Source of the DNA: Streptomyces sp. I6
GTDB lineage: Bacteria > Actinomycetota > Actinomycetes > Streptomycetales > Streptomycetaceae
Assembly (NCBI GenBank): GCA_003725745.1
Contig: RHDP01000001.1
Coordinates: 5,187,501 to 5,251,500, forward strand
Length of the DNA: 64,000 nucleotides
Reading direction: 5' to 3'
Both the position numbers and the translations under genes were made by a program. Below are positions 22,110 to 62,735 of the stretch, piece after piece. Under the pieces are notes generated by a model. That model was given only the letters and a program-made list of their open reading frames with translations, made no database searches and had not been told where the DNA came from. Position 1 is the stretch's first letter. Every line of letters starts with the position of its first letter.

Positions 22110-25100
22110 TCAGGCCCGTATGCGCAGGCCGCGGGGTGTGGCGTGGAAACCGGTCTCCTCCAGCGGGCGGGAGAGCGGAGAGGTCAGAGCCGCCGAACCG
22201 TTGATCCGTTCGACCGTGATCGTGCCGAGCATGCCCGCCCCGCCCGCCTCGGCCAGGGCCTCGGCGGCGGCACGGAGGACCGGGTCGTCCGGCTCGGAGG
22301 CCCAGGACAGCAAGGCCTTGCCGCCCCGCTCCAGGTAGAGCGTCAGCTCCCCGTCGACCAGCACGACCAGTGAGCCCGCCTTGCGGCCCGGTTTGTGGCT
22401 CGCGCCGACCGGCGGCTCGGGCCAGGACAGCGCCGCCCCGTACGCGTTCGCCGGGTCGGCGGCGGCCAGGACCATCGCACGCGGTGCGGTGTGCCCGTCG
22501 GCGCGCTCGCGGGCGCCGGCAGCGGCCCGCAGCCGGTCCACCGCGCCGTCCATCGCGAACTGGGCGGCTCCGAGCCCCTCGACGACATAGCCCCTCCGGG
22601 CCTGCCCGCTGTCCTCGAAGGCGGAGAGGATGCGGTATGTCGCCGAGAAACCGCCCTCGACGCCCTCTGCGGCGACCGCGCCCCTGGTGACGACACCATG
22701 CCGGTCCAGCAATGTACGGGCCAGGGCGTGGGCGCGGTGCGTGGGGTCGGGCTCGTGCGCGGGCAGCAGGGACCAGCGTCCGGAGACGGTCGGTGGACCG
22801 TTGCGGGACGCGGTCCGGGCGGCAGCCGTCAACGAGCCGTACCGCCCACGCGGGACCGTGCGCCGGGCGCGGTGCGCGGTGGAGCCCGCCGTGCGGCCGG
22901 ATCCCAGGAGCGAGCGCAGCGGCGCCAGGGTGTCGTTGGTGAGCCGGCCGGACCAGGCCAGCTCCCACAGTGCGTCGGCAAGCCGGGGGTCGGTGGCCTC
23001 GGGGTGCGTCGTCGCCCGCACCTGGTCCGCGATCTGGCGGAAGAACAGGCCGTAGCCTCCCGAGAGGGCCGAGAGCACCGACTCGTGGAGGGCCGTCAGC
23101 TCCAGCGGATGGGGCCGCGGCAGCAGCAGCGGGGCGGCGTCGGCGTGGTAGAGCGAGACCCAGCCGTCCTTGCCCGGCAGCGCGCCGGCTCCGGCCCACA
23201 CCACCTCGCCGGTCGTGGTCAGCTCGTCCAGCAGGCCCGGCGCGTATCCGGCCACCCGGGACGGGAGGATCAGCTTCTCCAGCGCGGAGGCGGGCACGGG
23301 GGCGCCCTGGAGCTGCTCGACGGCGCGGGCCAGTCCGTCGATCCCGCGCAGGCTGCTGCCGCCCAGATGCTGCCACTGGGGCAGGAAGGCGGCCAGCGCG
23401 GCGGGCGGCACCGGTTCCAGCTCCTCGCGGAGCGCGGCGAGGGAGCGGCGCCGCAGCCGGCGCAGCACGGCGGCGTCGCACCACTCCTGGCCGATGCCCG
23501 ACGGATGGAACTCGCCCTGGACGACCCGCCCGGCCGCGGCGAGCCGCTGCAGTGCCCCGTCCGTCACGGCCGCGCCCAGCCCGAACCGCGCGGCCGCCTG
23601 CGACGAGGTGAACGGCCCGTGTGTGCGGGCGAAACGGGCCAGCAGATCGCCGAGCGGGTCCTTCACCGGCTCCGTGAACGCCTCAGGGACGCCCACCGGC
23701 AGCGCCGTGCCCAGCGCGTCCCTGAGGCGTCCCGCGTCCTCCACCGCCGCCCAGTGTTCCGCACCGGAGATCCGGACCCGGATGGCGCGGCGGGTACCGG
23801 CGAGCTCCTCGGGCCAGCCGGGGTCGGCTCCGCGCTCGGTCAGCTCCCCGGTCGTCAGCGGCCCGAGGACCCGCAGCAGGTCGGCGACCCCCTCCACGTC
23901 CTTGACCCTGCGGTCGTCCGTGAGCCACTGGAGCTCCCGCTCCAGCTCGCCCAGGACGTCCGCGTCGAGCAGTTCGCGCAGTTCCGCCTGGCCGAGGAGT
24001 TCGGCGAGCAGCCGGGAGTCCAGCGAGAGGGCGGCGGCCCGTCGCTCGGCGAGCGGCGAATCCCCTCGTAGAGGAACTGGGCCACATAGCCGAACAGGAG
24101 GGAGCGTGCGAAGGGGGAGGGCTCGGGGGTGGTGACCTCGACGAGCCGCACCCTGCGGGACTCGATGTCGCCCATCAGCTCTTCGAGTCCGGGGACGTCG
24201 AAGACGTCCTGGAGGCACTCGCGTACGGCTTCGAGGACGATCGGGAACGAGCCGAACTCGCTGGCGACCTGGAGCAGCTGGGCCGCGCGCTGACGCTGCT
24301 GCCACAGCGGGGTGCGCTTTCCGGGATTCCGGCGCGGCAGCAGCAGGGCGCGTGCCGCGCACTCGCGGAACCGGGACGCGAACAGCGCGGATCCGCCGAC
24401 CTGGTCGGTGACGATCTGACCGATCTCACCCTTGTCGAACAGGGTGTCGCCGGCGCCGACCGGGGCCTGGTCGCCGTCGTACGAGGTGTCGAGGTGCACC
24501 GGGTCCTGGTCCAGCAGGTCGAGGCCCATCAGGTCGGCGTCGGGTAGCCGCAGCACGATTCCGTCGTCCGCGTGCATGACCTGGGCGTCCATGCCGTACC
24601 GCTCGGAGAGGCGCGCACCCAGTGCGAGTGCCCAGGGGGCGTGGACCTGGGCACCGAACGGCGAGTGCACCACGACCCGCCAGTCGCCCAGTTCGTCACG
24701 GAACCGCTCGACGACGATGGTGCGGTCGTCGGGCACATGCCCGCAGGCCCGGCGCTGCTCGTCGAGGTACGACAGGACGTTACCGGCCGCCCAGCCGTCG
24801 AGGCCGGCCGTCATCAGCCGCAGCCGGGCGTCCTCCTCGGGCAGCGACCCGATCTCGCGGAGGAAGGCGCCCACCGCCCTGCCCAGCTCGAGCGGACGGC
24901 CCAGCTGGTCGCCCTTCCAGAACGGCAGTCGGCCGGGGACCCCGGGAGCGGGCGAGACGAGCACCCGGTCGCGGGTGATGTCCTCGATCCGCCAGGAGGT
25001 GGTGCCCAGGGTGAAGACGTCGCCGACCCGGGACTCGTAGACCATCTCCTCATCGAGCTCGCCGACCCGGCCGCCGCCCTTCTTGGGGTCCGCACCGGCC

Positions 25101-26740
25101 AGGAAGACGCCGAACAGCCCGCGGTCCGGGATCGTGCCGCCCGAGGTGACCGCGAGCCGCTGGGCGCCGGGGCGCCCCGTGACCGTCCCGGCGACCCGGT
25201 CCCACACCACCCGCGGGCGCAGCTCGGCGAAGGCGTCGGACGGGTACCGGCCCGCCAGCATGTCCAGCACGGCCGTGAACGCCGACTCGGGGAGCGAGGC
25301 GAAGGGCGCGGCGCGGCGCACGACCGCCAGCAGGTCGTCGAACTGCCAGGTGTCGAGGGCGACCATGGCGACGAGCTGCTGGGCCAGCACGTCCAGCGGA
25401 TTGGCGGGGATGCGGAGTGATTCGATCGAGCCCGTGCGCATCCGCTCGGTGACGACGGCAGCCTGGACCAGATCCCCCCGGTACTTGGGGAAGACGACAC
25501 CCGTGGACACCGCCCCCACCTGGTGCCCGGCGCGGCCCACGCGCTGCAGGCCGGAGGCGACCGACGGCGGGGACTCGACCTGGACGACCAGGTCCACCGC
25601 GCCCATGTCGATGCCCAGCTCCAGGCTGGATGTCGCGACGACGGCGGGCAGCCTGCCCGCCTTGAGGTCCTCCTCGACGAGAGCGCGCTGCTCCTTGGAG
25701 ACCGAGCCGTGGTGCGCGCGGGCGAGCAACGGGGGCGCGCCCCGCGCCGCACCGGACTGCGCCATGACGTCGGCGGGCGGGGCGCCGTCGGGAAGGGGTT
25801 CTCCCACGGTGCGTTCGTAGGCGATCTCGTTGAGCCGGTTGCAGAGCCGCTCCGCGAGACGGCGGGAGTTCGCGAAGACGATCGTCGAGCGGTGGGCCTG
25901 CACCAGATCGGCGATGCGCTCCTCCACCTGCGGCCAGATCGACGGCTTCTCACCGGGGCCGTCCGGTTCGGACGCCGGAGAGCCGCCGAGCTCGCCCATG
26001 TCCTCGACCGGGACGACGACGGAGAGGTCGAACTCCTTCCCGGACGGCGGCTGGACGATCTCCGCCCGGCGCCCCGGCGACAGGTAGCGCGCCACCTCGT
26101 CCACCGGCCGGACGGTCGCCGAGAGGCCGATCCTCCGGGCCGGCCGGGGCAGCAGCCCGTCCAGCCGCTCGAGGGACAACGCCAGGTGCGCGCCGCGCTT
26201 GGTGCCCGCGACGGCGTGCACCTCGTCCACGATCACCGTCTCGACACCGCTCAGCGCCTCGCGGGCGGACGAGGTGAGCATCAGGAACAGCGACTCGGGA
26301 GTGGTGATCAGGATGTCCGGGGGACGGGTCGCCAGCGCCCGCCGCTCGGCCGCGGGGGTGTCCCCGGACCGGATGCCGACGCGGACCTCGGGCTCGGGCA
26401 GCCCCAGCCGCACGGCCTCCTGCCGGATACCGGTCAGCGGGCTGCGGAGATTGCGCTCCACGTCGACCGCGAGCGCCTTCAGCGGCGACACGTACAGCAC
26501 CCGGCAGCGCTTCCGGACGTCCGCCGGGGGCGGGGCGGACGTCAGGCCGTCGAGGGCGGCCAGGAACGCGGCGAGCGTCTTCCCGGAACCGGTCGGGGCG
26601 ACGACCAGCACGTCGGAGCCGCGGCCGATCGCCCGCCAGGCGCCCTCCTGGGCCGCGGTGGGCGCGCTGAAGGCCCCGGTGAACCAGCCGCGGGTCGCGG
26701 GGGCGAAGGTGTCGAGTGCACTGCCGACCATGACACCCAT
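22110..26740 (-). CDS. lhr: Lhr-type large ATP-dependent helicase, frameshifted in this sequence
   Basis: If restored, the protein is about 1543 residues. The N-terminal part has superfamily 2 helicase motifs: Walker A APTGSGKTLAA, the DEVH box in IVDEVHAV, SATVRP, and the C-terminal helicase block QRVGRAGHQ. The Lhr core follows (winged helix, DEAD/H-associated region). The C-terminal part, from GDSPLAERRAAAL to the end, matches the long actinobacterial C-terminal domain. The two parts lie in different frames. Frame changes at 24062-24065, where one extra G on the coding strand (five instead of four) joins QFLYEG to DSPLAER without a gap. Lhr is a 3'-5' translocase and DNA-repair helicase induced by DNA damage in mycobacteria. 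The missing base is more likely a sequence error than decay, because both halves are intact. Confidence 0.88.
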
Positions 26741-26787
26741 CGTGCACCGCCCCACTGACAAGCGCCCGGACCTGCGAGAATATCGAC

Positions 26788-27621
26788 ATGGCCGAGGGTG
26801 AGTGGGCGCGGTACTGGCAGCACGAGCGGCTTCCGGGGATCGACCTGCTCCGGGCCCGTTACGTGCGGCACACGTTCCCCCGCCACAGTCACGAGGGCTA
26901 CGTCTTCGGGACGATCACGCACGGCCTCGAGGACGTCGGGCTCCCGGGCGGTGTCGTGCACGCCGGGCCGGGCACGGTCGTGATGATCAATCCGGAGGTT
27001 CCGCACACCGCCCGCGCCGGGATCGCGGAGGGCTGGGTGTACTCGACGCTCTATCCGTCGTCCCGGGTGGTGGCCGAGATAGCGGCGGAGACCACGACGA
27101 TCAGGGGAACCGCCGGCTTCGCGGAGACCTCTGTGGCCGATCCGCAGGCGGCCCTGATGATCCGCGAGGTGCACCGCGCGGCCGAGGAGGGCAACGCGCT
27201 CGCCGCCGACAGCGTGTTGCGGATCATGGTGGCGCGGCTGCTGCGCAACCACGGAAGCAGCCTCCCGGCGCGTGAACCGCTCACGGCGGGCGCGCGCGAC
27301 GCGGAGCGCGCCCGGGCGGTGCTGGAGGAGCGGATGGCGGATCCGCCCACCCTCCACGCTCTCGCCGCGGAGCTGGGCACCAGCCCGTTCGCCCTGCTGC
27401 GGGCCTTCCGCGACCGCCACGGGATGCCTCCGCACACCTGGCTCACCGACGCCCGCGTCCGCCGGGCCCGGCGCCTGCTGGACGTGGGCGCGGCCCCGGC
27501 GCAGGCGGCCGCCGCGGTCGGGTTCACCGACCAGCCGCACCTGAACCGGCACTTCACGCGGATCGTGGGAGTGCCCCCCGGGGCCTACCGGCGGGGACGG
27601 GGAGTCGGCGGGCCGCTGTGA
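26788..27621 (+). CDS. AraC family transcriptional regulator
   Basis: 277 residues. The N-terminal cupin-like AraC ligand domain (residues about 1-160) has HSHEGYVFGTITHG. The C-terminal HTH_18 domain (about 180-270) shows the two HTH units, including LAAELGTSPFALLRAFRDRHG and AAVGFTDQPHLNRHFTRIVG. Such regulators respond to small molecules and often activate a neighbouring transporter. AzlC/AzlD lie downstream on the same strand and lhr diverges from the same 47-base gap, so either may be its target. This type is often found beside LysE or AzlCD exporters. Confidence 0.88.
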   Translation: MAEGEWARYWQHERLPGIDLLRARYVRHTFPRHSHEGYVFGTITHGLEDVGLPGGVVHAGPGTVVMINPEVPHTARAGIAEGWVYSTLYPSSRVVAEIAAETTTIRGTAGFAETSVADPQAALMIREVHRAAEEGNALAADSVLRIMVARLLRNHGSSLPAREPLTAGARDAERARAVLEERMADPPTLHALAAELGTSPFALLRAFRDRHGMPPHTWLTDARVRRARRLLDVGAAPAQAAAAVGFTDQPHLNRHFTRIVGVPPGAYRRGRGVGGPL

Positions 27622-27711
27622 GGCCGGTTCTCCGGCAGGGTGGGCGTGACCGGGGAGGGGGGCGAGACGGGTGGGGCCTGCGGCGCACCGGCTCGGTGCG
27701 CAACGGTTCGG

Positions 27712-27765
27712 GGCACGGGCACGGGCACGGGCACAGGCACGGGCACAGGCACAGGCACGGGCACG
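27712..27765 (+). repeat. Hexanucleotide tandem repeat GGCACR (9 units)
   Basis: Nine units of GGCACG or GGCACA run without a break between the AraC gene and azlC. A complementary GTGCCTGTGCC at 27791-27801 can fold back on it. The rest of the 312-base gap (27622-27933) has no gene; it must hold the azlC promoter, whose boxes I cannot place. Confidence 0.85.
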
Positions 27766-27933
27766 GGCGCGATTCGGGGCACGGCAGCGGGTGCCTGTGC
27801 CGTGTGCGGGATGGCGGGCGGAGAGTGGACGGCGGAGGGGAGAGGAAGCGGCGTGCCAGGGCAGGGATGAGACGGCGCGTGCGTGCAAGAACGTACAAGA
27901 CCGCGAAGTATCCGCTCCCGTACCGTCCATGGC

Positions 27934-28728
27934 GTGCCAGAACAGACAGCATCAGCGGAAATACCCGTCGACGTCGAACGGCGCACCCCGGCCGGTGCGG
28001 CGGGGGCGGCCGGGGCGCGTACGACCGCCGGCGTACCGGTGAAAGCCGACTCCGCCGTGGTACGGGACGCCCTCGGGGTGGGCGTCGCCGTCGGCCTGTC
28101 CGGCTTCGCGTTCGGCGTGACCGCCGCGGGCGCCGGGCTCGACGTCCTGCAGACCTGCGCCCTCAGCCTGCTCGTCTTCACCGGTGCGTCGCAGTTCGCG
28201 CTGGTCGGGGCACTGGCCGCGGGCGGCAACCCGTTCACCGCCGCCGCCGGCGCCTTCTTCCTCGGTACCCGCAACGCCTTCTACGGCCTGCGGCTCTCCC
28301 AGCTCCTCGCCGTGCGCCGGGCCGTGCGGCCCCTCGCGGCCCACTGGGTCATCGACGAGACCACCGCGGTGGCCCTGGCCCAGCCCACCCGCAGGGCCGC
28401 CCGCATCGGCTTCACCGTCACCGGGCTCACCCTCTATCTGCTGTGGAACCTCACCACACTGCTCGGCGCGCTCGGCGCCGAGGCCGTCGGCGACACGAAC
28501 GCCTGGGGACTGGACGCGGCCGGGCCGGCCGTCTTCCTGGCACTGCTGGCACCCATGCTGCGCACGACGACCGATCGGGTGGTCGCGGGGATCGCGGTCG
28601 TCCTCGGGCTGGGGCTGCTGCCGGTGCTTCCCGCCGGCGTACCCGTACTGGTCGCCGCACTCGCGGCGCCCGCCGTCCTCTGGTGGCAGGGGCGGACGGC
28701 CGGCAGGCGGAAGGGAGCGGAGCGTTGA
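27934..28728 (+). CDS. azlC: AzlC family branched-chain amino acid permease subunit
   Basis: 264 residues from the GTG at 27934 (an in-frame ATG at 27883 is less likely). After about 40 polar residues come six or seven membrane helices. The AzlC signature is clear: GVGVAVGLSGFAFGVTAAGAG, FTGASQFALVGALAAGG, FFLGTRNAFYGLRLS and AHWVIDETTAVA. AzlC with AzlD exports branched-chain amino acids or analogues. The stop overlaps the azlD start (TTGA), so the two are coupled. Confidence 0.92.
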   Translation: MPEQTASAEIPVDVERRTPAGAAGAAGARTTAGVPVKADSAVVRDALGVGVAVGLSGFAFGVTAAGAGLDVLQTCALSLLVFTGASQFALVGALAAGGNPFTAAAGAFFLGTRNAFYGLRLSQLLAVRRAVRPLAAHWVIDETTAVALAQPTRRAARIGFTVTGLTLYLLWNLTTLLGALGAEAVGDTNAWGLDAAGPAVFLALLAPMLRTTTDRVVAGIAVVLGLGLLPVLPAGVPVLVAALAAPAVLWWQGRTAGRRKGAER

Positions 28729-29033
28729 ACGTCTGGATCGCCATCGGAGCGACCGCCGCCGCCTGCTACCTGGTCAAACTGGCCGGTCTGCTGGTGCCGG
28801 CCGGCGCGCTGGAGCGCCCGCTCGTCCGGCGGCTCGCCGCCCTGCTCCCGGTCGCCCTGCTGGCAGCACTCACCGCCCAGCAGACGTTCAGCACGGGCGA
28901 CGCACTGGTGCTGGACGCCCGCGCCGCCGGGTTGGCCGCCGCGGCGGTGGCGCTGGTCCTGCGGGCGCCGTTCCTCGTCGTGGTCGCCGCCGCCGTGACC
29001 GTCACCGCGACGGCGAGGGCTCTCGGGGCCTGA
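28725..29033 (+). CDS. azlD: AzlD family branched-chain amino acid transport subunit
   Basis: 102 residues with a TTG start that overlaps the azlC stop. Three or four hydrophobic helices are visible (ATAAACYLVKLAGLLV, LAALLPVALLAALTAQQTF, LVLRAPFLVVVAAAVTV). The size and the pairing with azlC identify the family. It is the small partner needed for AzlC-type export. Confidence 0.9.
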   Translation: MNVWIAIGATAAACYLVKLAGLLVPAGALERPLVRRLAALLPVALLAALTAQQTFSTGDALVLDARAAGLAAAAVALVLRAPFLVVVAAAVTVTATARALGA

Positions 29034-29140
29034 GCCGGCCAGCCCGTCCCGCGGAGCCGGGACAAGGGGTCGGAGGCGACCGGGTGCTCGTGCCGTCCCA
29101 AGGCGGCAAGCCGTACGTACGCAGCAGGGCGCGTGCCGCC

Positions 29141-30046
29141 TCAGTGGAGCACGCGTCCGTGCGCCCGCAGTGTGCGCAGCGCCTCGACCGTCACCACCGG
29201 GCGCCACTCCAGGGCGGTGCTCGGCGTCCACCGGCGCCACCGGACCAGCCAGCCACCGTCCTCCTGCTGCTCACGGGCGAGGTGGTCGAGCGACCGGTCC
29301 ATCTCCTCGTCGGTGAACCAGCGCCGTGCCAGCGAGCCGGGCACGCGCGCGTAGTCGTGCGGATAGTGGTACTCGCCCGGGGCGTAGCCCGCGGCGACCG
29401 GGTGGTCGTCCGAACGGTCCGGGTCGAGTACCGCGAGCCGCTGCTCGCGCACCAGCCGGCCGAGCCGGTCCGCGGCCTCCTCGGCACGCGACCTGTCCGG
29501 GACCCCGTCCAGGAACGCGACCGCCGCCTGGATCTCGTACGGGTGCGACTTCCGCAGCCCCTCCACCGCCGCCCAGCAGAAGTCGGTCGCGCGGAACAGC
29601 CACGCGTGCCACACCTGGTTGCGGTGCAGCAGGCCCACCACGGGCCCCGTGGCCAGCAGCTCGCTGGGCGGATCCGTCACGACCGGGATGAACGGCGCCG
29701 TGGGATACCCGCGCTGCGAGGGATGGATCACGGGCAGGGCGCCGTCCCGGGTGGCCACGTGCGTGAGGTAGCGGCAGATCCGCTCCGCACGCAGGCCGCC
29801 GCAGCGCCCGATCGAGTCCAGCACGCGCAGGGCGTGCGCGGTGTGCAGCGGCTGGCTCGCGGGGCCGCGGAGATCGGGCTCCAGGGCGTGTCCGTAGCCG
29901 CCGTCCTCGTTGAGGTACGCGGTCAGCGCGGCTTCGACCGGCTCGGCCGCCGCCCCCAGGAAGTGATACGCGAACCGCCGCTGTTCGAGCACACGGGCCG
30001 TGAGCCAGACGAAATGCTCGGCGCGTGCCAGAGGTGTTCCAGCCAT
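29141..30046 (-). CDS. Conserved protein, terpenoid-cyclase-like alpha/alpha toroid (function unknown)
   Basis: 301 residues. Repeating helical segments with Asp-Gly-Gly turns (NEDGGYGHALEPDL, EQQEDGGWLVRW) resemble prenyltransferase/squalene-cyclase repeats. There is no catalytic DxDD motif, so a real cyclase is unlikely. No signal peptide is visible. Close homologues are common in Streptomyces near recA, from memory. It is convergent with azlD and divergent from the DUF3046 gene. Confidence 0.75.
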   Translation of the reverse strand: MAGTPLARAEHFVWLTARVLEQRRFAYHFLGAAAEPVEAALTAYLNEDGGYGHALEPDLRGPASQPLHTAHALRVLDSIGRCGGLRAERICRYLTHVATRDGALPVIHPSQRGYPTAPFIPVVTDPPSELLATGPVVGLLHRNQVWHAWLFRATDFCWAAVEGLRKSHPYEIQAAVAFLDGVPDRSRAEEAADRLGRLVREQRLAVLDPDRSDDHPVAAGYAPGEYHYPHDYARVPGSLARRWFTDEEMDRSLDHLAREQQEDGGWLVRWRRWTPSTALEWRPVVTVEALRTLRAHGRVLH

Positions 30047-30511: not shown

Positions 30512-31860
30512 GTGGCAGCGAACGACGGCACCACCCAGGACGAGAACCGCCCGACCTCCCGGTACGCGGAGGCCGGGCGGCCCGACGACGACACCGGGAG
30601 CGTCGCGGCAAGTGCCCCGGGCCGGGTGACCGTCCCCCGCCCGCAGCCGCGTCCGACGGGGACAGCCGGACCGGCGGGAGAGTCGGGACCGTCGGCGCGG
30701 CGGCCCCGCCGAGCCGGATGCCACGCTGGCTGCCCCGCGCGATGGTGCTGGCGCTGGCGCTCTACGGCTGCTTCCAGCTCGGCAGCTGGGCCTTCCACCA
30801 GCTGATCGGTCTGCTGATCAACGTGCTGATCGCGTTCTTCCTGGCGCTCGCGATCGAGCCCGCCGTGGGCCGGATGGCGGCCCGCGGCATCCGCCGCGGC
30901 ATCGCCACGTTCCTCGTCTTCATCGCGGTGCTGGCCGCGGGTGTGGGCTTCGTCGTGGCGCTCGGCTCGATGCTGGCCGGTCAGATCGTCGAGATGGTCG
31001 AGGACTTCCCCGAGTACCTGGACCAGGTGATCAACTGGATCAACAAGACCTTCCACAGCGAACTGTCCAGGGTCGCGATCCAGGACAGCCTGCTGCGTTC
31101 CGACTGGCTGCAGAAGTACGTGCAGAACAGCGCGACCGGTGTGCTCGACGTCTCCGCGACGGTGCTCGGCGGGCTGTTCAAGCTGCTGACGATCTTCCTC
31201 TTCTCCTTCTACTTCGCGGCGGACGGGCCGAGGCTGCGGCGCGCTCTGTGCTCGGTACTGCCGCCGTCGAAGCAGGCCGAGGTGCTGAGGGCCTGGGAGA
31301 TCGCCGTCGACAAGACGGGCGGATATCTTTACTCGCGCGGGCTGATGGCGCTGATCTCGGGGTTCGCCCACTACGTGCTGCTGGCGATGCTGGATGTGCC
31401 GTACGCCCCTGCGCTGGCCATGTGGGTGGGGCTGGTGTCGCAGTTCATCCCGACCATCGGCACCTATCTCGCGGGCGCCCTGCCGATGCTCATCGCCTTC
31501 ACGATCAACCCCTGGTACGCGCTGTGGGTGCTGGGTTTCGTACTGATCTACCAGCAGTTCGAGAACTATGTGCTGCAGCCGAAGCTCACCGCCCGGACCG
31601 TGGACATCCATCCGGCGGTGGCGTTCGGCTCGGTCATCGCCGGTACCGCGCTGCTGGGTACGGTCGGCGCGCTGATCGCGATTCCGGCCGTCGCCACGCT
31701 CCAGGCCTTCCTCGGCGCCTATGTGAAGCGCTACACCGTGACGGAGGACCCGCGGGTCCACGGGCACCGGAGGCACGGCGAGGTGGTGCTGGCCCGGGTC
31801 CAGCGGGCCCTGCGCGGCAAGAAGGAGGGGGCGGCGGCCGACGGGGAGCGCGGCGGCTGA
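30512..31860 (+). CDS. AI-2E family transporter (PerM-like), N-terminus frameshifted
   Basis: About 449 residues if restored. The membrane part is intact from MPRWLPRAMVLALALYG onward. It has seven or eight helices, the large loop with VEDFPEYLDQVINWINK, and family motifs such as VSQFIPTIGTYLAGALP and LVFGFVLIYQQFENY-like sequence near residue 345. A plausible N-terminal tail (VAANDGTTQDENRPTSRYA...) starts at the GTG 30512 in another frame. One extra C in the run 30704-30707 would join the two. The alternative, translation from an in-frame start at 30505 or at the ATG 30718, cannot be excluded. The substrate is unknown; family members export autoinducer-2 or ions. Confidence 0.8.
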
Positions 31861-33293: not shown

Positions 33294-33301
33294 CCGGCAC
33301 C

Positions 33302-33894
33302 GTGCCCGACCCGAGCACGCGGCATACCGCGAAGAGGCCGGGCGGCAGCTCAGCGTCGTCGAGGGCCGATGAGGAGCTGCCGCCCCAGGACCCGGCGGAG
33401 AGGGCGCGGGCGATCTGCCTGCGTCTGCTCACCGGCACCCCGCGGACCCGGAGACAACTCGCCGAGGCGCTCCGCAAGCGTGACATCCCGGATGAGGTCG
33501 CCGAAGAGGTGCTGTCCCGCTTCGAGGACGTCGGCCTCATCGACGACGCGGCGTTCGCGGGCGCCTGGGTGGAGTCACGGCACCACGGCCGCGGACTCGC
33601 CCGCCGTGCCCTCGCGCGTGAACTGCGCACCAAGGGCGTCGATCCGGCGCTGATCGACGAGGCGGTCGGCCGGCTCGGCACCGACCGGGAGGAGGAGACG
33701 GCACGGGAGCTGGTCGCCAGGAGACTCCGCTCCACCCGGGGCCTCGACCGGGACCGCCGTCTCCGCCGCCTCGCGGGCATGCTCGCCCGCAAGGGATACC
33801 CGGAGGGGATGGCCCTGAGGGTGGTCCGCAGGGCCCTGGAGGAGGAGGGCGAGGACACCGGGGGCTGGACGGGCTGGGGGACGGCCCCTACTGA
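33302..33894 (+). CDS. recX: RecX regulatory protein, 3' end probably frameshifted
   Basis: RecX binds RecA filaments and inhibits them. The three-helix repeats of the family are clear (residues about 35-190), including LAEALRKRDIPDEVAEEVL and FAGAWVESRHHGRGL. As read, the frame continues to 34231, giving 309 residues and a 175-base antisense overlap with the next gene. Adding one G to the run 33860-33864 changes the end to EDTGGLDGLGDGPY and a stop at 33892-33894, giving 197 residues, a normal RecX size. I therefore set the end at 33894. The GTG start lies eight bases after recA. Confidence 0.8.
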
Positions 33895-39338: not shown

Positions 39339-40189
39339 TTACTTGACGATGTCGCCGATCTTCGGCGCGGGCTCGTTCTGGTACCCGGCCGGGCCGAAGT
39401 GGGTCTCCACGGCCTTGTCCCAGGACTTGTCCTGGACCATCTTCTCCAGGGCCTTGTTGATCTTCTCCTTGAGCTCGGTGTCGCCCTTCTTGAGGCCGAT
39501 GCCGTAGTTCTCGTTGCTCATCTTGAAGCCGGCGAGCTTGAACTTGCCCTTGAAGGCGTCCTGTGCGGCGTAACCGGCGAGGATCGAGTCGTCCGTGGTG
39601 AGCGCGTCGATGACCTTGTTCTCCAGGCCGGTGAGGCACTCGGAGTAGCCGCCGTACTCCTGGAGCTGCGCCTTCGGGCGAGCTTGTCCTTGACGTTCTG
39701 CGCCGAGGTCGAGCCGACCACCGAGCAGAGCTTCTTGTTGTTCAGGTCCGCAGGGGACTTGATGGAGTCGTCGTCGGCGCGGACCAGGATGTCCTGGTGG
39801 GCCAGCAGGTACGGGCCGGCGAAGTCCACCTTGGCCAGGCGCTTGTCGTTGATCGAGTAGGAGGCGACGATGAACTTGACGTCGCCGCGCTCGATCGCGG
39901 TCTCGCGGTCGGCGCTCTTGGTCTCCTTGAAGACGATGTCGCCCTCGTCGTAGCCGAGCTCCTTGGCCACATACGTGGCCACGTCGACGTCGAAGCCCAC
40001 GAACTTGCCGTCCGGGGTCTTCAGGCCGATGCCCGGCTGGTCGACCTTGATACCGATCGTGATCTTCTCGCCGCCGCCCGCGGAACCGCCGCCCGCGGCG
40101 TCGTCCTTCGTGCCGGAGCCACAGGCGGTGACGGTGAGAGCGAGTGCGACGGCGGCCGCTGCGGCGGCGGAGGCCTTACGGAGCTTCAT
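39339..40189 (-). CDS. gluB: Glutamate-binding lipoprotein GluB, frameshifted in this sequence
   Basis: About 283 residues if restored. The lipoprotein signal ends VTACGSG. The periplasmic-binding type II fold follows, with VDQPGIGLKTPDGKFVGFD and VKFIVASYSINDKRLAKV. After VKDKLA the frame breaks at the run 39676-39678. One extra C on the coding strand gives KLAPKAQLQEYGGYSECL and continues to GYQNEPAPKIGDIVK and the TAA stop. Both parts are well conserved, so a sequence error is likely. If real, about 115 residues are lost and uptake would fail. The protein delivers glutamate to GluC/GluD. Confidence 0.9.
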
Positions 40190-41055: not shown

Positions 41056-41309
41056 CGGCTTCTTGCTCCGTCCTCCTCGGTTGGGAGGACCTTAATGAGG
41101 CGCTGCGACCATCGTCATTACATCTGAGCGGAAATTGAGCATAACGATCCGGCCGCAACCGGACACTCTGCGTCAACGGGGCGGCGCTCGCAGTACCGGG
41201 TGGGTAACGAAAAACCCCAGGTCGCCGGTGTGCCTCTTGACGCATGGTGGGCCTATCGGTCTTTATGCCCTGGTAACAACGCGCGAGTCACCACCGGGAG
41301 GGGGGCCAC
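41056..41309. promoter_or_regulatory. Divergent control region gluA / gluR
   Basis: 254 bases lie between the divergent starts. The stretch 41100-41150 is AT-richer than its surroundings (TGAGCGGAAATTGAGCATAA), fitting promoters for one or both genes. By analogy with S. coelicolor, GluR should bind here, but I cannot point to a repeat that would be its operator. Confidence 0.5.
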
Positions 41310-47503: not shown

Positions 47504-47510
47504 CGCACTC

Positions 47511-48190: not shown

Positions 48191-48373
48191 ATCCACTCCA
48201 AAGACTAACTCGTGTGGGCGAAGTTCCGCGCCGCCCGGAGCGGCCCGCCGCCTCGCCCCGAAGGCGCCGGTCCTGCGACCGGCGCCGGGAACCTCGCAAC
48301 AGGCAACGACCCCGCCCGGGCCCCGTCACGTAGCTCGTTCGGGGACGGCCGGGTCGTTTGCGAGACTGGGGCG

Positions 48374-54870: not shown

Positions 54871-55002
54871 CCTCCGCCTGCTCCCGCCCGCCGGGGAGCA
54901 CTGACCTCCGCCTGCTCCCGGCGGGGAGCACCGGCCTCCGGCCCCGGCCCCGGCCCCGGCGGGGAGCACCGGCCTCCGGCCCCGGCCCCGAGCCCGGCGG
55001 GG
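54855..55002 (+). repeat. Four imperfect tandem repeats after the M1 peptidase
   Basis: Four copies of a 30-38-base unit start with GGAGCAC at about 54861, 54895, 54925 and 54963. The first contains the stop codon. Later copies contain CCGGCC runs. The gap 54871-55224 has no gene; the hflX promoter should lie in its right part. Confidence 0.8.
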
Positions 55003-55224
55003 CGGAAACCGGGATGACGGCCGCGGCGCCGCCGTGGGACCATCGACAGGTCGGCGGCGCCGCCGCCGGGCCGGTCCTCCGGGACGGGGACGGGCCCTTG
55101 ACCGGCCCGTCCACCCCGGCGCGGCACACCGGGAATGTTCCGGGATCGTGACGCGTTGTGACTATCGTGGAAGCATGCCGTGCGCATGCGCTCCGCATCG
55201 GCTCTCCATCGACGTAAGGATCCA

Positions 55225-56715
55225 ATGACCTCCTCTTCATCCACTTCCCAGGACGCGCAGAGCTTCGCGGACACCACCCGCACCGAGAGCCTCCGGGCCG
55301 ATGCCCTGATGGAAGAGGACGTCGCCTGGAGCCACGAGATCGACGGAGAGCGGGACGGCGACCAGTTCGACCGCTCCGACCGCGCCGCGCTGCGGCGCGT
55401 GGCGGGCCTCTCCACCGAACTCGAGGACGTCACGGAGGTCGAGTACCGGCAGCTGCGCCTCGAGCGCGTCGTGCTCGTCGGCGTGTGGACCTCCGGGACC
55501 GTCCAGGACGCGGAGAACTCCCTCGCCGAACTCGCGGCCCTCGCCGAAACGGCGGGAGCGCTCGTGCTGGACGGCGTGATCCAGCGCCGCGACAAGCCGG
55601 ACCCGGCCACGTACATCGGCTCAGGCAAGGCGAACGAGCTGAGCGACATCGTGCTCGAGAGCGGAGCCGACACCGTGGTCTGCGACGGTGAGCTCAGCCC
55701 GGGCCAGCTGATCCACCTCGAGGACATCGTCAAGGTCAAGGTGGTCGACCGGACCGCCCTGATCCTGGACATCTTCGCGCAGCACGCGAAGTCCCGGGAG
55801 GGCAAGGCGCAGGTGGCCCTGGCGCAGATGCAGTACATGCTTCCCCGGCTGCGCGGCTGGGGCCAGTCGCTGTCCCGGCAGATGGGCGGCGGCAGCGGCG
55901 GCATGGCCACCCGCGGCCCCGGCGAGACCAAGATCGAGACGGACCGGCGCCGGATCCGCGAGAAGATGGCGAAGATGCGCCGGGAGATCGCGGAGATGAA
56001 GACCGGCCGGGAGATCAAGCGGCAGGAGCGCAGGCGGCACCGGGTCCCTTCGGTGGCGATCGCCGGCTACACCAACGCGGGCAAGTCCTCACTGCTCAAC
56101 CGCCTCACCGGCGCGGGTGTCCTGGTGGAGAACGCGCTGTTCGCCACCCTGGACCCGACCGTCCGGCGGGCCGAGACGCCGAGCGGCAGGCTGTACACGC
56201 TGGCCGACACCGTCGGGTTCGTCCGGCATCTGCCGCACCACCTCGTCGAGGCGTTCCGCTCCACGATGGAGGAGGTCGGCCAGTCCGACCTGATCCTGCA
56301 CGTGGTCGACGGTGCGCACCCCGCACCGGAGGAGCAGCTGGCCGCCGTGCGCGAGGTGATCCGGGACGTCGGCGCGGTGGACGTGCCCGAGATCGTCGTG
56401 GTCAACAAGGCGGACGCGGCCGATCCGCTGGTGCTGCAGCGCCTGCTGCGCATCGAGCGGCGCGCCATCGCCGTCTCGGCGCGTACGGGCTCGGGGATCG
56501 ACGAACTCCTCGGGATCATCGACGCGGAACTGCCCCGCCCGCAGGTCGAGATCGAGGCCCTGCTGCCGTACACGCAGGGAGCGCTCGTCTCGCGGGTCCA
56601 CGCCGACGGTGAGGTGCTGTCGGAGGAGCACACCTCCGAGGGCACCCTGCTCAAGGCGCGGGTGCACGAGGAACTCGCGGCCGCGCTGGGGCCGTACGTC
56701 CCCGCGGCGCGCTGA
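55225..56715 (+). CDS. hflX: GTPase HflX
   Basis: 496 residues from the ATG at 55225, with AAGGA upstream. The N-terminal HflX nucleotide-binding domain (about 85-200) has IGSGKANELSDI. A coiled linker includes RGPGETKIETDRR. The G domain has G1 GYTNAGKSS with Lys287, G3 DTVGFVRHLP and G4 NKAD. HflX binds the 50S subunit and splits stalled or idle ribosomes, mainly in stress. The length is normal. Confidence 0.95.
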   Translation: MTSSSSTSQDAQSFADTTRTESLRADALMEEDVAWSHEIDGERDGDQFDRSDRAALRRVAGLSTELEDVTEVEYRQLRLERVVLVGVWTSGTVQDAENSLAELAALAETAGALVLDGVIQRRDKPDPATYIGSGKANELSDIVLESGADTVVCDGELSPGQLIHLEDIVKVKVVDRTALILDIFAQHAKSREGKAQVALAQMQYMLPRLRGWGQSLSRQMGGGSGGMATRGPGETKIETDRRRIREKMAKMRREIAEMKTGREIKRQERRRHRVPSVAIAGYTNAGKSSLLNRLTGAGVLVENALFATLDPTVRRAETPSGRLYTLADTVGFVRHLPHHLVEAFRSTMEEVGQSDLILHVVDGAHPAPEEQLAAVREVIRDVGAVDVPEIVVVNKADAADPLVLQRLLRIERRAIAVSARTGSGIDELLGIIDAELPRPQVEIEALLPYTQGALVSRVHADGEVLSEEHTSEGTLLKARVHEELAAALGPYVPAAR

Positions 56716-56802
56716 GCCCTCCGCGGTCCGCACACTGCGGATCTCGAAGTCCATCGCACCCCTTGAGCCGGGGTGTTGCGACGACCACTGGAACCTGAGC
56801 AC

Positions 56803-56843
56803 CCCCTGGGCCCTTCCGGCAGCGCGCCGGAAGGGCCCAGGGG
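56803..56843. terminator. Bidirectional terminator hflX / protease
   Basis: An 18-bp perfect stem (56803-56820 with 56826-56843) with loop AGCGC lies between convergent genes and can serve both. Confidence 0.88.
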
Positions 56844-56866
56844 CGTCCGTCCCGGCCCGCGGCGGG

Positions 56867-58084
56867 CTACCGGCCCGCGAACTTGGCGCTGACGGCGTCG
56901 TAGACGTCCTCGGCCTCCGCGCCCAGACGCGGTCCGGCGAGCCAGCCCGCCGTCGCCGGGCCGATCGAGGTGTTGGAGACCAGTGCGGGCCTGCCGTCCC
57001 CGCCGGCAGCGACCCAGCCGCCACCGGACGAACCACCGGTCATGGTGCAGCCGATGCGGTACATCGTCGGCTCCTCCGCCTTCAGCGACAGCCGGCCCGG
57101 CCTGTCCTCGCACTGGAACATCCGCTCGCCGTCGAACGGCGGCGACGCCGGGAAGCCGGTCGCCTTCATGCGGCCGATGTCCGCCACGGCCGGAGCGTCG
57201 AAGTCGACCGGGAGCGCCGAACCGACCGTCTCCTCCAGGGACTTGCCGTCGCCGCCCTTCTCGGGTGTCACATGGATCACGGCGAAGTCGTACGGCGCGC
57301 CCCGGCCGCCCGTCGCCGCCCCCTGCGAGATCCACTCGTCGGAGGTCCCCGCCCAGTCGCCCCACCACACGCCGTAGGGGGCCACCTCCTCCCTGGAGTC
57401 ACCCTCGGTGGAGGTCTTGGCGCCGTTGTTGTAGGACGGCACGAAGGCGATGTTGCGGTACCAGCCGCCCTCCTTGCCCGCGTGGACGCAGTGCCCCGCG
57501 GTCCACACCAGGTTGGACCTTCCGGGGTTCGCCGGGTCCTTCACCACGGTCGCGGAGCAGACCATCGAACCCTTGGGGCCGTCGAAGAAGACCTTCCCGG
57601 CCTCGGGGGCGCTGCCGTGGTAGGGCGCGGCCACCGCCGCGGCCTCGACCGGCCGGGGCGCCGGGTCGGTGACACCCTCGTCACTGGGGATGTCCTCCTC
57701 CGCGACCGGCTTCTCGGGCTCCTCGGCCTCGCGCATCCGGTCCGGGTTCCACAGGTCCTCGATGATGGGGTTGACGAAGTCCTTGGCCTCGCGGAGCCAG
57801 GTGTCCCTGTCCCAGTCCTTCCACTCCCCGTCGCGCCACTTGTCCAGGTCTATCCCGTGCTCCCTGAGCCGGTCCTTGAGATCGTCCGGAATGGTGATCT
57901 TCCCGTCGGCCGTGCCGCCCGCCGCCGCCGAAGCGCTCGGCCCGTCCACCGCACCGTTCCCACCGGAGCCGCAGGCCGTGGCCGTCAGCGCGAGCGCGGC
58001 GGCCAGCGCGGCCGCCGCGAGCACCGGTCTGCGGGCGGCGCTCCCCGCACGGCGTGCCGCGAAGATCGGGCGATTGGGTCGCAT
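56867..58084 (-). CDS. Secreted trypsin-like serine protease lipoprotein
   Basis: 405 residues from the ATG at 58084, GGGGGA upstream. The signal ends TATACGSG (lipid Cys38). A linker region (residues 60-150) rich in Asp/Glu/Pro precedes the chymotrypsin fold. Catalytic triad: His198 in TAGHC, Asp266 in YDFAVI and Ser353 in GGSSGGGW. It is anchored outside the membrane. The target is unknown. Similar lipoproteins lie beside hflX in other streptomycetes. Confidence 0.9.
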   Translation of the reverse strand: MRPNRPIFAARRAGSAARRPVLAAAALAAALALTATACGSGGNGAVDGPSASAAAGGTADGKITIPDDLKDRLREHGIDLDKWRDGEWKDWDRDTWLREAKDFVNPIIEDLWNPDRMREAEEPEKPVAEEDIPSDEGVTDPAPRPVEAAAVAAPYHGSAPEAGKVFFDGPKGSMVCSATVVKDPANPGRSNLVWTAGHCVHAGKEGGWYRNIAFVPSYNNGAKTSTEGDSREEVAPYGVWWGDWAGTSDEWISQGAATGGRGAPYDFAVIHVTPEKGGDGKSLEETVGSALPVDFDAPAVADIGRMKATGFPASPPFDGERMFQCEDRPGRLSLKAEEPTMYRIGCTMTGGSSGGGWVAAGGDGRPALVSNTSIGPATAGWLAGPRLGAEAEDVYDAVSAKFAGR

Positions 58085-58386
58085 GTGGTGATCCCCCTGG
58101 GACTTCATCAGGTGCGTGCATACGGAACGAGACCGACCGCGCACAGCCCGGCGACGCCGCCGGTGCCGCGGTGCGGCCCCCACTATGCCGGTGCCGATGG
58201 GGACGGCGAGCGGCAGGGCCGTGGTTCCCGGGCCCGAGGATCTTCCGGAATGGCCGTGATCCGCCGCTTCCGGAGTCGTTGGTACGGACGGGGGGACGCG
58301 GGTTCCAGCGTTCACCGTCGCGCCGGTGCCGGTCGACCGCCGTACCGAGGCGCGACACAACCGTGACAGTCGGAGGACGAACAACC
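58085..58386. promoter_or_regulatory. Divergent region protease / siderophore operon
   Basis: 302 bases between divergent starts must hold both promoters. I searched by eye for a DmdR1-type iron box (TTAGGTTAGGCTCACCTAA-like) and saw none. Confidence 0.45.
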
Positions 58387-59763
58387 GTGGCCGTGACCGA
58401 ACCCGCTCCGCCGGCACAGCCCGTCGCGCACGAAGGCATCCTGCGCCGCCAGTCGCTCCGCGAGTCGGCGGCGCGGACCTACGCCCGCTCGCTGCCCATC
58501 GTCCCGGTACGCGCCAGGGGGCTGACGATCGAGGGGGCGGACGGACGGCGCTATCTCGACTGCCTCTCGGGCGCCGGGGCCCTCGCCCTCGGCCACAACC
58601 ACCCCGTGGTCCTGGAAGCGATCAAGAAGGTGCTCGCCTCCGGAGCGCCGCTGCACGTCCTCGATCTCGCCACCCCGGTCAAGGACGCCTTCACCACCGA
58701 GCTGTTCGCCACGCTGCCGCGGCCACTCGCCGACGACGCCCGTATCCAGTTCTGCGGGCCGGCCGGCACGGACGCCGTCGAGGCCGCTTTCAAACTGGTC
58801 CGCACCGCGACGGGCCGCACCGGGCTCCTGGCGTTCACCGGCGCCTACCACGGCATGACGGCCGGGGCGCTGGACGCCTCCGGGGGCGCCCCCGACGTCC
58901 GGGTGACGCGGCTGCCCTACCCGCAGAACTACCGCTGCCCCTTCGGGGCCGGCGGTGAACGCGGAGCCGAACTCGCCGCCCGCTGGACCGAGAACCTGCT
59001 GGACGACCCCAAGGGCGGTGTCCCCGCACCCGCCGGAATGATCCTCGAACCGGTGCAGGGCGAGGGCGGTGTCATCCCCGCCCCCGACGGCTGGCTGCGG
59101 CGGATGCGGGAACTCACCGCGGCCCGTTCCATCCCGCTGATCGCCGACGAGGTGCAGACCGGGGTGGGCCGCACCGGAGCCTTCTGGGCGGTCGAGCACA
59201 GCGGGGTCGTCCCCGATGTGATGGTGCTGTCCAAGGCCATCGGCGGTTCCCTTCCCCTGGCCGTGATCGTCTACCGTGCCGACCTGGACGTCTGGCGGCC
59301 CGGCGCCCACGCCGGCACTTTCCGGGGCAACCAGCTCGCCATGGCCGCCGGCGCGGCCACCCTGGCCTTCGTTCGGGAGAACCGGCTCGCGGAGCGGGCC
59401 GCTGCCCTCGGCGCGCGCATGCTGGGGCGGCTCCAGGGCCTCGCCGCGACCCACCGCTGCGTCGGCGACGTACGCGGCCGGGGGCTGATGATCGGCGTCG
59501 AGCTGGTCCAACCCGACATCGGCGTCCCGCATGCCGACGTCCCGCCGGCCGACCCCGTCCTGGCCGCCGCCGTGCAGCGGGAGTGCCTGCGCCGCGGGCT
59601 CATCGTCGAACTCGGCGGGCGCCACTCCGGGGTCGTCCGTCTGCTGCCTCCCCTCACGCTCACCGACGAGCAGGCCGAGGCGGTCCTCGACCGCTTCGCC
59701 GACTCCCTGGAAGCGGCCGTGTGCGCACCGCACCGCCGCAACGACACCGGACCGTCTCTGTGA
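58387..59763 (+). CDS. PLP aminotransferase of the siderophore operon (diaminobutyrate--2-oxoglutarate type)
   Basis: 458 residues from the GTG at 58387, nine bases after GGAGGA. Class III aminotransferase fold: GALALGHNHP, GPAGTDAVEAAFKLVR, LEPVQGEGGV, IADEVQTGVGRTG and the PLP lysine Lys283 in LSKAIGGSLP. It makes the diamine precursor (2,4-diaminobutyrate in the RhbA family). Gene order resembles rhbA followed by rhbC, rhbD and rhbF. Decarboxylase and monooxygenase genes are not in this window. Confidence 0.88.
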   Translation: MAVTEPAPPAQPVAHEGILRRQSLRESAARTYARSLPIVPVRARGLTIEGADGRRYLDCLSGAGALALGHNHPVVLEAIKKVLASGAPLHVLDLATPVKDAFTTELFATLPRPLADDARIQFCGPAGTDAVEAAFKLVRTATGRTGLLAFTGAYHGMTAGALDASGGAPDVRVTRLPYPQNYRCPFGAGGERGAELAARWTENLLDDPKGGVPAPAGMILEPVQGEGGVIPAPDGWLRRMRELTAARSIPLIADEVQTGVGRTGAFWAVEHSGVVPDVMVLSKAIGGSLPLAVIVYRADLDVWRPGAHAGTFRGNQLAMAAGAATLAFVRENRLAERAAALGARMLGRLQGLAATHRCVGDVRGRGLMIGVELVQPDIGVPHADVPPADPVLAAAVQRECLRRGLIVELGGRHSGVVRLLPPLTLTDEQAEAVLDRFADSLEAAVCAPHRRNDTGPSL

Positions 59764-59791
59764 TCCCGGACGACACCACAAGGAAGTCCCC

Positions 59792-61782
59792 GTGAACCGC
59801 ACCCCCGCTGCCGGCACCCCAGAACCCGAGCGCCGTCCCCCCACGGGTCACCACCCCGGGCGGAGCACGACGGACGCCCCCGCCGCCGTCGGGGCGGGGA
59901 CGGTACCGCGGCAGTCGCCCGGGGCACCCGACGACGAAGGCGGCGGTCCCGCGGCCGAGGCGTCCCCGGCCCCGGCAGCGGCCCCCGCCGGGGCTCCGCC
60001 GGACACGGCGGCCGACCCGCTGGACCACCCCGACCCCCTGGTGGCCGCCGACGCCGGCACCGTGGAGAACCTCCTGCGCTGCTGGGTCCGGGAGAACGAC
60101 CTCCCGGAGCCCGGCGGGGACCGCCTGCGCATCCCGCTCCACGCCAGCGGCACCGCCCTGCTGGTGCCGGTCCTCCACTGGTCCCCCGCCGGCTGGCACC
60201 GCTTCGGCCCGCCCGTACTGGAGGGCGCGCCGGCGGACGCGCCCCCCGCCGACGCCGTCACCGTCGCGGTCCTCCTCACCCGTGAGCCGGGTGGTGACGG
60301 TGCCGGTCCCCGCCCCGGCGGCCCGCGGGGAGACGGTGGGGGACGCCGTCCGGAAGCGGTCGACCTCGCCGGACGCGTCGCGGACTCCGTCCTCCGTACC
60401 GCCGCATTCATCGACGACCGGCGGCGGCGCCCCGCCCCCGGCACGGGGCCGACCTGTTCCTGACCGCCGAGCAGTCGCTGATCCTGGGCCATCCGCTGCA
60501 CCCCACCCCCAAGAGCCGCGAAGGGCTCTCCGAGGCCGAGGCCCGGCTCTACTCACCGGAGCTGTACGGCTCCTTCCTCCTCCACTGGCTCGCCGTCGAC
60601 CGGTCCGTACTGGCCGCCGACTCGGCCTGGACGGAAGAAGGCCGCACGGTGCCCGCCGAGCGGATCACCTCCCGGCTGGCGGGTGGCCTCCGCCTCCCTC
60701 CCGGCACCGCCGCCCTGCCGTTGCACCCCTGGCAGGCACGCGAGGTGGGCCACCGGCCCGAAGCCGCCGCGCTGTTCGACGCGGGCCTGCTCCACGACCT
60801 GGGCCCGGCCGGCGAACCCTGGCATCCCACCTCCTCCGTCCGCACCGTGCACCGGTCCGGCGCGCCGGCCATGCTCAAGCTCTCCCTCGGCGTGCGCATC
60901 ACCAACTCCCGCCGTGAGAACCTCCGCAAGGAACTCCACCGGGGCGTGGAGGTGCACCGTCTTCTCCGCAGCGGCCTGGGCACGCAGTGGCGGGCCGCGC
61001 ACCCCCGCTTCGACATCGTCCGCGACCCGGCATGGCTCGCCGTGGACACCCCGGACGGAGCGCCGCTCCCCGGGCTCGACGTCATGATCCGGCACAACCC
61101 GTTCGGCCCGGGGGACGACGCCGTCTGCCTCGCGGGCCTCACCGCCCCCCGGCCCTGGCCGGGCCGGACGGGCATCCACTCGCGCCTCGCCGAGGTCATC
61201 GGCGGCCTCGCCACCCGGACGGGCCGCCCCGCCAGTGCCGTCGCCGCCGAGTGGTTCCTGCGCTACCTCGACCAGGTCGTGCGCCCGGTGCTCTGGCTGG
61301 ACGCCACGGCGGGGGTCGCCCTGGAGGCCCACCAGCAGAACACCCTGGTGATCCTCGATCCCCAGGGCTGGCCCGCCGGCGGCCGCTACCGCGACAACCA
61401 GGGGTACTACTTCCGGGAGTCGCGCCGTGCCGAACTCGACCGCCGGCTTCCGGGCATCGGCGCGCTCAGCGACACCTTCGTCGACGACGCCGTCACGGAC
61501 GAACGCTTCGCCTACTACCTCGGCATCAACAACGTCCTCGGTCTCATCGGCGCCTTCGGGTCGCAGCGGCTCGCCGACGAGCGCATGCTCCTCGCCGGGT
61601 TCCGCCGCTTCCTCGACGCAGCCCGCCACCTCGGCTCACCGCTGCCGGCGCAACTGCTGGACAGCCCGGCCCTGCGCTGCAAGGCGAATCTGCTCACCCG
61701 GCTCCACGGCCTCGACGAGCTGGCCGGCCCGGTCGACAGCCAGTCCGTCTACGTCACCATCGCCAACCCGCTGCACTCCTGA
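59792..61782 (+). CDS. IucA/IucC family siderophore synthetase, frameshifted in this sequence
   Basis: About 663 residues if restored. The GTG at 59792 has AAGGAAG upstream. A Pro/Ala-rich tail of about 80 residues precedes the synthetase. The N-terminal part (ENLLRCWVRENDLPEPGG, LLVPVLHWSPAGWHRF) lies in one frame. The rest lies in another: LGHPLHPTPKSREG (ATP site), LPLHPWQAREV, RTVHRSGAPAMLKLSLGVRITNS-type block, and ALEAHQQNTLV. The switch falls near the G run 60445-60448. One extra G joins PAPGTG to ADLFLTAEQSL. It condenses citrate or a dicarboxylate with an amine or hydroxamate using ATP. Both halves look conserved. Confidence 0.88.
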
Positions 61783-61938
61783 GGGAACCTGCCGCCCCGG
61801 CACCACCCGCCTCCGGAGGACCTTCGACTCCGCAGCCACCCGCCGCAGCCCACCCGCCACCGAGACGACCGGTCACCCGGGATCGGCACCCCGTCCCACG
61901 ACCGGCCCGCCCGAACTGCTGAGAGGAGAGCGCCAGCC

Positions 61939-62735
61939 ATGTCGCCCACCGAAGCGAGCGCCGAGACAGACGGCCCAGACACCCCTCCGGCGGCGGTGGC
62001 GTGGAGGACACCCTCGAGCTGCGGCTGCCCGGCGAACTCCTGGCGCTCTTCGGGCAGGACCGGCACTCCCGCACTCAGGCACCGGCCGGCCGGGAACCGC
62101 AGGGCACCACCCCCCGCGGCGCTTCCGGCGGCGAGAAGCCCCCCGGCCGGCCGTTCCCCGGCGAGGACCTGCTCGACGCCCTCGCCGAGTGGGGTGTGGT
62201 CGCCACCGCCGTCGGCTCGTTCCAGCTGGTGCCCGTCCGGATCGATCGGGATCTGCAACTCATCAGCAGCTGGATGAACGATCCCGCCGTCGCGGCCTTC
62301 TGGGAGCTGGCCGGACCGGAGTCCGTCACCGAGCACCATCTCGGCGGCCAGCTTGCGGGGGACGGCCGCAGCATCCCCTGCCTCGGCGTCCTCGACGGCG
62401 TGCCGAGGGGCTACTTCGAGATCTACCGAGCCGACCTCGACCCACTCGCGCGCCACTACCCCGCCCGGCCCCACGACACCGGCATCCACCTCCTGATCGG
62501 GGGCGTCGCCGACCGCGGCCGCGGTCTCGGCACGACCCTGCTCCGGGCCACGGCCGACCACGTACTCGACCACCGCCCCCACTGCGCGCGCGTCGTCGCC
62601 GAACCCGACCTGCGCAACACCCCCTCCGTCGCCGCCTTCCTCAGCGCCGGCTTCCGCTTCTCCGCGGAAGTCGACCTCCCCGACAAGCGGGCCGCGCTCA
62701 TGGTCCGCGACCGGGCGCTGAGCAAGGTGCTGTGA
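61939..62735 (+). CDS. GNAT acyltransferase of siderophore assembly (IucB/RhbD-like), N-terminus probably frameshifted
   Basis: About 265 residues if restored. The acetyltransferase core (about residues 95-260) matches siderophore N-acyltransferases: ISSWMNDPAVAAFWELAGP, YFEIYRADLDPL, HLLIGGVADRGRGLGTTLL and RVVAEPDLRNTPSVAAF. The core frame has a GTG at 62001 without a ribosome site. An ATG at 61939 behind GAGAGGAGAG is in another frame. One extra C in the run 61982-61985 joins DGPDTP to SGGGGVEDTLELRLP. It should acylate the hydroxylated diamine. The alternative is translation from 62001. Confidence 0.82.

What the first reader, a model, noticed from the sequence alone, without database searches (positions are those of the whole stretch)
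24062..61985. Six candidate single-base deletions, all at short G/C runs: probable sequence errors, not six pseudogenes
lhr (24062-24065), gluB (39676-39678), the first IucA/IucC gene (60445-60448), the AI-2E permease (30704-30707), recX (33860-33864) and GNAT (61982-61985) each read through if one base is added to a run of 3-5 G or C. Every event has the same sign, a missing base. In the first three, conserved protein continues exactly in the new frame. Independent decay would give mixed substitutions, insertions and stops. This is best explained by homopolymer undercalling. The 5S gene also has a G run (five G before ACCC) that may be one short.
Basis: partly seen in the sequence, partly recalled or inferred. 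Interest (0 to 1): 0.75.

Follow-up and report, generated by a model that had tools for sequence, protein, structure and literature searches.

The report
Sequencing errors mimic six broken genes
Six genes in this Streptomyces stretch look broken only because the genome assembly very probably lost single letters in runs of G or C, so this is an ordinary sequencing artefact and not gene decay.

Summary
All six genes change frame by one missing base relative to Streptomyces wuyuanensis, the nearest named relative found (about 90-91% DNA identity), which reads through at each. The AI-2E break is better placed near 30637 than 30704. The 5S gene is one G short: five Gs here, six in the other five copies found in this genome.

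The cause is almost certainly undercalled G/C homopolymers across the assembly. In 804 kb of this genome, 39 clean one-base-loss frame breaks stand against 3 one-base gains. Against S. wuyuanensis, G/C runs of 4, 5 and 6 are one short at 9/843, 18/172 and 10/27; in the other direction at 3/855, 0/162 and 3/20.

Real decay is very unlikely. Broken genes have the same dN/dS as intact ones (median 0.174 against 0.177). They include murC, dapB and ligA, found only as pieces in different frames with no second full copy. The two-contig assembly is rated only 87.4% complete.

This artefact is already documented for Streptomyces. No reads were available, so the platform and the true bases are inferred. 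Interest is low.

The parts
24062..24065 (-). lhr frame break; C run of 4 on + strand, 5 in S. wuyuanensis
39676..39678 (-). gluB (SBP_bac_3) frame break; G run of 3 on + strand, 4 in S. wuyuanensis, G015 and G004
60433..60448 (+). First IucA/IucC gene: one-base-loss frame break somewhere in this stretch; position ambiguous between neighbouring C and G runs
30633..30720 (+). AI-2E permease: one-base-loss break between the conserved N-terminal segment and the membrane core; best gap at 30637
33860..33864 (+). recX: one-base-loss break in the last ~10 residues, G run of 5
61982..61985 (+). GNAT acetyltransferase: one-base-loss break in the N-terminal tail, C run of 4
1817..1821 (+). 5S rRNA G run of 5; 6 in the other five 5S copies found in this genome and in S. 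wuyuanensis, G015, G004, G005 and G006 (no match in G012's stretch)
446..450 (+). 23S rRNA G run of 5; 6 in two other 23S copies of this genome and in G015, G004 and G005

Best explanation
The six frameshifts are consensus errors of the assembly. Where the true DNA has a run of five or more G or C, the sequencing or consensus step often reported one base too few. In coding sequence this shifts the frame and makes an intact gene look like a pseudogene. Shown: loss-type sign, run-length dependence, within-genome disagreement between rRNA copies, no relaxed selection, and normally essential genes hit without a second full copy. Inferred: that the DNA itself is intact at these sites, and that the data were long-read only (suggested by 2 contigs and 87.4% completeness).
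For: Sign: 39 clean -1 breaks to 3 clean +1 breaks in 804 kb of this genome. Control genomes, nonredundant: G015 0 losses and 1 gain, G005 5 losses and 0 gains. Length: one short against S. wuyuanensis at G/C runs of 3: 11/4285, 4: 9/843, 5: 18/172, 6: 10/27; reverse direction 8/4287, 3/855, 0/162, 3/20. Where G005 and G015 agree: 0/224 at 4, 3/37 at 5, 3/7 at 6, 1/1 at 7; each control 0/33-34 at 5 and 0/3-4 at 6. rRNA copies of this same genome: 5S short in 1 of 6, 23S short in 3 of 5 readable copies. Selection: 15 broken genes median dN/dS 0.174, 115 intact 0.177, p = 0.65. murC, dapB and ligA only in pieces in different frames. Completeness 87.42% in 2 contigs. Precedent: S. albus SM254 had 205 indels left after Quiver, nearly all in G or C homopolymers (PMC4832174, passages).
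Against: No reads were available. gluB's run is 4 in relatives, a length rarely shortened (9 of 843). AI-2E, recX and GNAT break in weakly conserved tails and IucA/IucC in a weakly conserved stretch, so the exact base lost is uncertain. Single-base indels of both signs occur in the window against S. wuyuanensis: 13 losses and 9 gains with clean flanks; the gains lie mostly near gene ends, three are unassigned. At runs of 5 there were also 3 gains in 172. Length differences at runs of 1-2 are many and less one-sided, and may be natural. Scans also gave breaks that were not clean: 6 with G005, 2 with G015 and 4 with S. wuyuanensis proteins. G005 itself shows 5 losses and no gains, so a mild form of the bias is not unique to this genome. 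The first pieces of dapB and ligA alone pass their family cut-offs. One of the three short 23S copies is a divergent copy, where five Gs could be natural.
Confidence: 0.97

Rival explanations
1. Six genuine pseudogenes: independent decay of unneeded genes in this strain.
For: The reading frames really are interrupted in the deposited sequence.
Against: All six are losses of one base near G/C runs. At lhr and gluB the protein is 93-97% identical to S. wuyuanensis on both sides. dN/dS of broken genes equals that of intact genes. The same pattern hits normally essential genes and rRNA copies.
Confidence: 0.01
2. A real mutator lineage that loses bases in G/C runs, for example through a replication or repair defect.
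For: Would also give one sign and dependence on run length.
Against: Breaks in murC, dapB and ligA without a second full copy should be lethal (established knowledge of these genes; not tested here, and ATP-dependent DNA ligases were not searched). A loss at 10 of 27 six-base runs is hard to square with selection (inference).
Confidence: 0.01
3. Most sites are errors but one or two of the six (gluB the likeliest, or a tail site such as recX or GNAT) are true differences of this strain.
For: The gluB run is 4 in relatives, and runs of 4 were shortened in only 9 of 843 cases. Tail sites tolerate change.
Against: They are one-base losses next to G/C runs like the rest; gluB is 96.5% and 95.5% identical to S. 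wuyuanensis on its two sides.
Confidence: 0.1

Closest known systems
Residual homopolymer indels in long-read Streptomyces assemblies (PMC6923854, PMC4832174; passages read)
   Same: Single-base errors in G/C homopolymers of high-GC Streptomyces, found with short reads and, in one paper, checked by broken protein matches: 70, 295 and 335 SNP/indels between PacBio-only and corrected versions of three genomes, the vast majority single-base insertions in homopolymers; 205 indels in S. albus SM254.
   Different: There short reads proved it. Here only comparison with relatives and between rRNA copies is available. My rough extrapolation, about 600 coding breaks per genome (18 in 185 kb, taking 87% of 7.05 Mb as coding, which is assumed), is higher than those counts.
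Gene-fragmenting errors in long-read assemblies, Kastor (PMC12007338; start of abstract in a listing and passages)
   Same: In its main P. syringae example most indels are false deletions, mostly after homopolymers, especially of four to five bases.
   Different: There A/T runs were hit about twice as often as G/C. Here A/T runs of 3 or more are too few to judge (0 losses in 156).

Membership tests
Homopolymer undercalling artefact | Excess of one-base losses over gains | tested here: met
   39 to 3 clean breaks; 85 to 30 clean single-base indels in 404 kb against S. wuyuanensis
Homopolymer undercalling artefact | Error rate rises with true run length | tested here: met
   About 0.3%, 1%, 10%, 37% at G/C runs of 3, 4, 5, 6
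Homopolymer undercalling artefact | Inconsistent calls of the same sequence in repeated genes | tested here: met
   5S run short in 1 of 6 copies, 23S run short in 3 of 5 readable copies
Homopolymer undercalling artefact | Accurate reads show the longer run | not testable with these tools
   No reads held
Pseudogene | Relaxed selection, dN/dS above that of intact genes | tested here: not met
   0.174 in 15 against 0.177 in 115, p = 0.65; a very recent break would not show
Pseudogene | Mixed kinds of lesion | tested here: not met
   Almost only one-base losses by G/C runs

The most novel reading that the evidence does not exclude
The missing bases are real in the DNA: a living Streptomyces lineage with one-base losses in G/C runs of hundreds of genes, including murC, dapB and ligA, that still makes the proteins by slippage at the shortened runs.
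Probability: 0.005. Interest if true: 0.9.

Novelty: not a real feature. Interest (0 to 1): 0.08.

Why it matters
Anyone counting pseudogenes, missing pathways or gene fusions in this genome would be misled: roughly one gene in ten may look broken (my estimate from 15 broken and 115 intact genes). The useful by-product is a simple check: compare homopolymer lengths between rRNA copies of the same assembly.

Tried and rejected
The relaxed protein scan of the window found no further convincing coding break, but it also missed IucA/IucC, recX and AI-2E, so it is not proof that there are no others. The +1 at 41301 and the +8 at 15075 lie upstream of the likely true starts (judged by eye). The single-base loss at 48351 lies before the likely start of the downstream gene, which looks like miaA (P-loop read by eye, no database call). 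Single-base gains at 47504, 58295 and 58330 could not be assigned to a coding frame and stay unresolved.

Three of the 39 loss-type breaks (near genome positions 5066147, 5073921 and 5158415) rest on weak or intergenic alignments and may not be coding. I left them in the count.

The reverse scan, with this genome's own predicted proteins, gave 6 gains and 4 losses in G005, 7 gains and 0 losses in G015, and 11 gains and 0 losses in S. wuyuanensis (clean one-base breaks). The 4 losses in G005 go with its own bias.

In the dN/dS test, genes under 70% identity or 80 codons, and unbroken genes covered for less than 85% of their length, were dropped.

Homopolymer-length distribution alone was weak: runs of 5 G/C are about 15% rarer than in G005, G015 and G012 but about equal to G004 and G006.

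The first literature search, with 'nanopore', gave nothing relevant. I did not try to identify the record or the platform.

Full report
What the window is. The window is bases 5187501-5251500 of contig 1 of a 7,054,598-base genome in two contigs, rated 87.42% complete. It is a Streptomyces. The nearest named relative among the 80 loci kept by the scan is S. wuyuanensis CGMCC 4.7042, at 91.2% over 18.8 kb; the scan may leave out records of this genome or ones very near it. Its contig, called G031:C19 here, runs alongside the window and beyond: 245.6 kb aligned at 90.4% of the 400 kb fetched.

Are the six breaks there? Yes. lhr and gluB change frame by one missing base with proteins of unnamed relatives: 5 of 5 for lhr; for gluB two close ones, while the more distant G005 and G006 copies also show a frame change and G012 had no match there. 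Both do so against S. wuyuanensis. The GNAT gene does so in a relaxed scan. For the IucA/IucC gene, recX and the AI-2E permease, which the scans missed, the frame translations of window and S. wuyuanensis show the conserved protein leaving one frame and going on in the one that a one-base loss gives. S. wuyuanensis reads through at all six. At lhr 46 of 46 spanning named loci carry one more base than the window. At gluB 67 of 73 do; four are net -2 (the same frame) and two net -1, which I did not explain (80 loci given). The IucA/IucC position is ambiguous within 60433-60448.

The 5S guess. The window's 5S gene has five Gs where S. wuyuanensis, G015, G004, G005 and G006 have six. The other five 5S copies found in this same genome all have six. 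A G run in the 23S gene, at 446-450, has five in the window copy and two other copies, one of them divergent, but six in two copies; the sixth copy gave no reading there, probably because it is partly masked. Copies of one rRNA gene disagreeing in the length of a six-G run is what undercalling predicts.

Is it genome-wide, and of one sign? I scanned 400 kb upstream, the window and 340 kb downstream with proteins of relatives. Clean one-base-loss breaks: 15 with G005 proteins, 16 with G015, 18 with S. wuyuanensis. Clean one-base-gain breaks: 2, 0 and 1. Other breaks, not clean: 6, 2 and 4. Merged, 39 losses to 3 gains (p = 6e-9), of which 37 and 2 lie outside the window. The same scan of two control genomes gave 0 losses and 1 gain in G015 and 5 losses and no gain in G005, so a mild bias exists in one control as well. 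In 404 kb at DNA level there were 85 single-base losses and 30 gains with clean flanks.

Does it follow run length? Yes, steeply. Taking S. wuyuanensis runs as reference, this genome is one short at 11 of 4285 G/C runs of 3, 9 of 843 of 4, 18 of 172 of 5 and 10 of 27 of 6; the single run of 7 is two short. Gains at runs of 5 were 3 of 172. In the other direction S. wuyuanensis is short at 8 of 4287, 3 of 855, 0 of 162 and 3 of 20. Where G005 and G015 agree with each other, this genome is short at 0 of 224 runs of 4, 3 of 37 of 5, 3 of 7 of 6 and 1 of 1 of 7, while neither control is short at any run of 5 (33 and 34) or 6 (3 and 4). Runs of 5-6 against runs of 2-4: Fisher p = 5e-45. The within-genome rRNA figure, 4 short of 11 readable six-G runs, agrees with 10 of 27.

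Could the breaks be real? Broken genes are under the same constraint as intact ones: median dN/dS 0.174 in 15 and 0.177 in 115, p = 0.65. The broken set includes ilvC, an ornithine carbamoyltransferase, dapB and murC by family models run on the relatives' copies. Searching the whole genome for murC, dapB and ligA found each at one place, split between different frames, with no second full copy. The first pieces of dapB and ligA still pass their family cut-offs; murC does not. Other hits were weak: five for murC at 85 bits or less against a cut-off of 335, two for ligA at 24 bits or less, none for dapB. That these genes are needed for growth is established knowledge, not tested here; ATP-dependent ligases were not searched.

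How it works. Most likely the reads or the consensus step cannot count long G/C runs reliably and report one too few. This genome, at 71% G+C, has about 250 G/C runs of five or more per 100 kb. The platform is not shown; a two-contig assembly of low completeness fits long reads without short-read polishing. The same artefact is in print for Streptomyces: 70, 295 and 335 differences, the vast majority single-base insertions in homopolymers, between PacBio-only and corrected versions of three genomes (PMC6923854, passages), and 205 indels nearly all in G or C homopolymers in S. albus SM254 (PMC4832174, passages). Kastor reports mostly false deletions at homopolymers in a long-read P. syringae assembly (PMC12007338, passages). 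The statement that homopolymer-length errors are the commonest residue of long-read bacterial assemblies is in the Polypolish abstract (PMC8812927, search listing).

Verdict. It is an ordinary artefact, well explained, with low interest. I cannot exclude that one of the six, gluB above all, is a true difference.

Noticed in passing
446-450: 23S rRNA G run called five in three copies and six in two copies of the same genome: an internal sign of undercalling.
   Followed up: yes
19345 and 58181: C runs one shorter than in S. wuyuanensis, apparently outside genes.
   Followed up: partly
5138-10633: A long ORF of 1831 codons whose stretch 5629-8468 matches its relatives at several regularly shifted registers (about 276 bases apart), so it carries internal repeats.
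   Followed up: no
L139-L158 with L031-L034 (unnamed relative G005): Five one-base-loss breaks and no gains against G015 proteins: this relative may have a milder form of the same problem.
   Followed up: no
47504, 58295, 58330: Single-base gains against S. wuyuanensis that I could not place in or out of a coding frame.
   Followed up: partly
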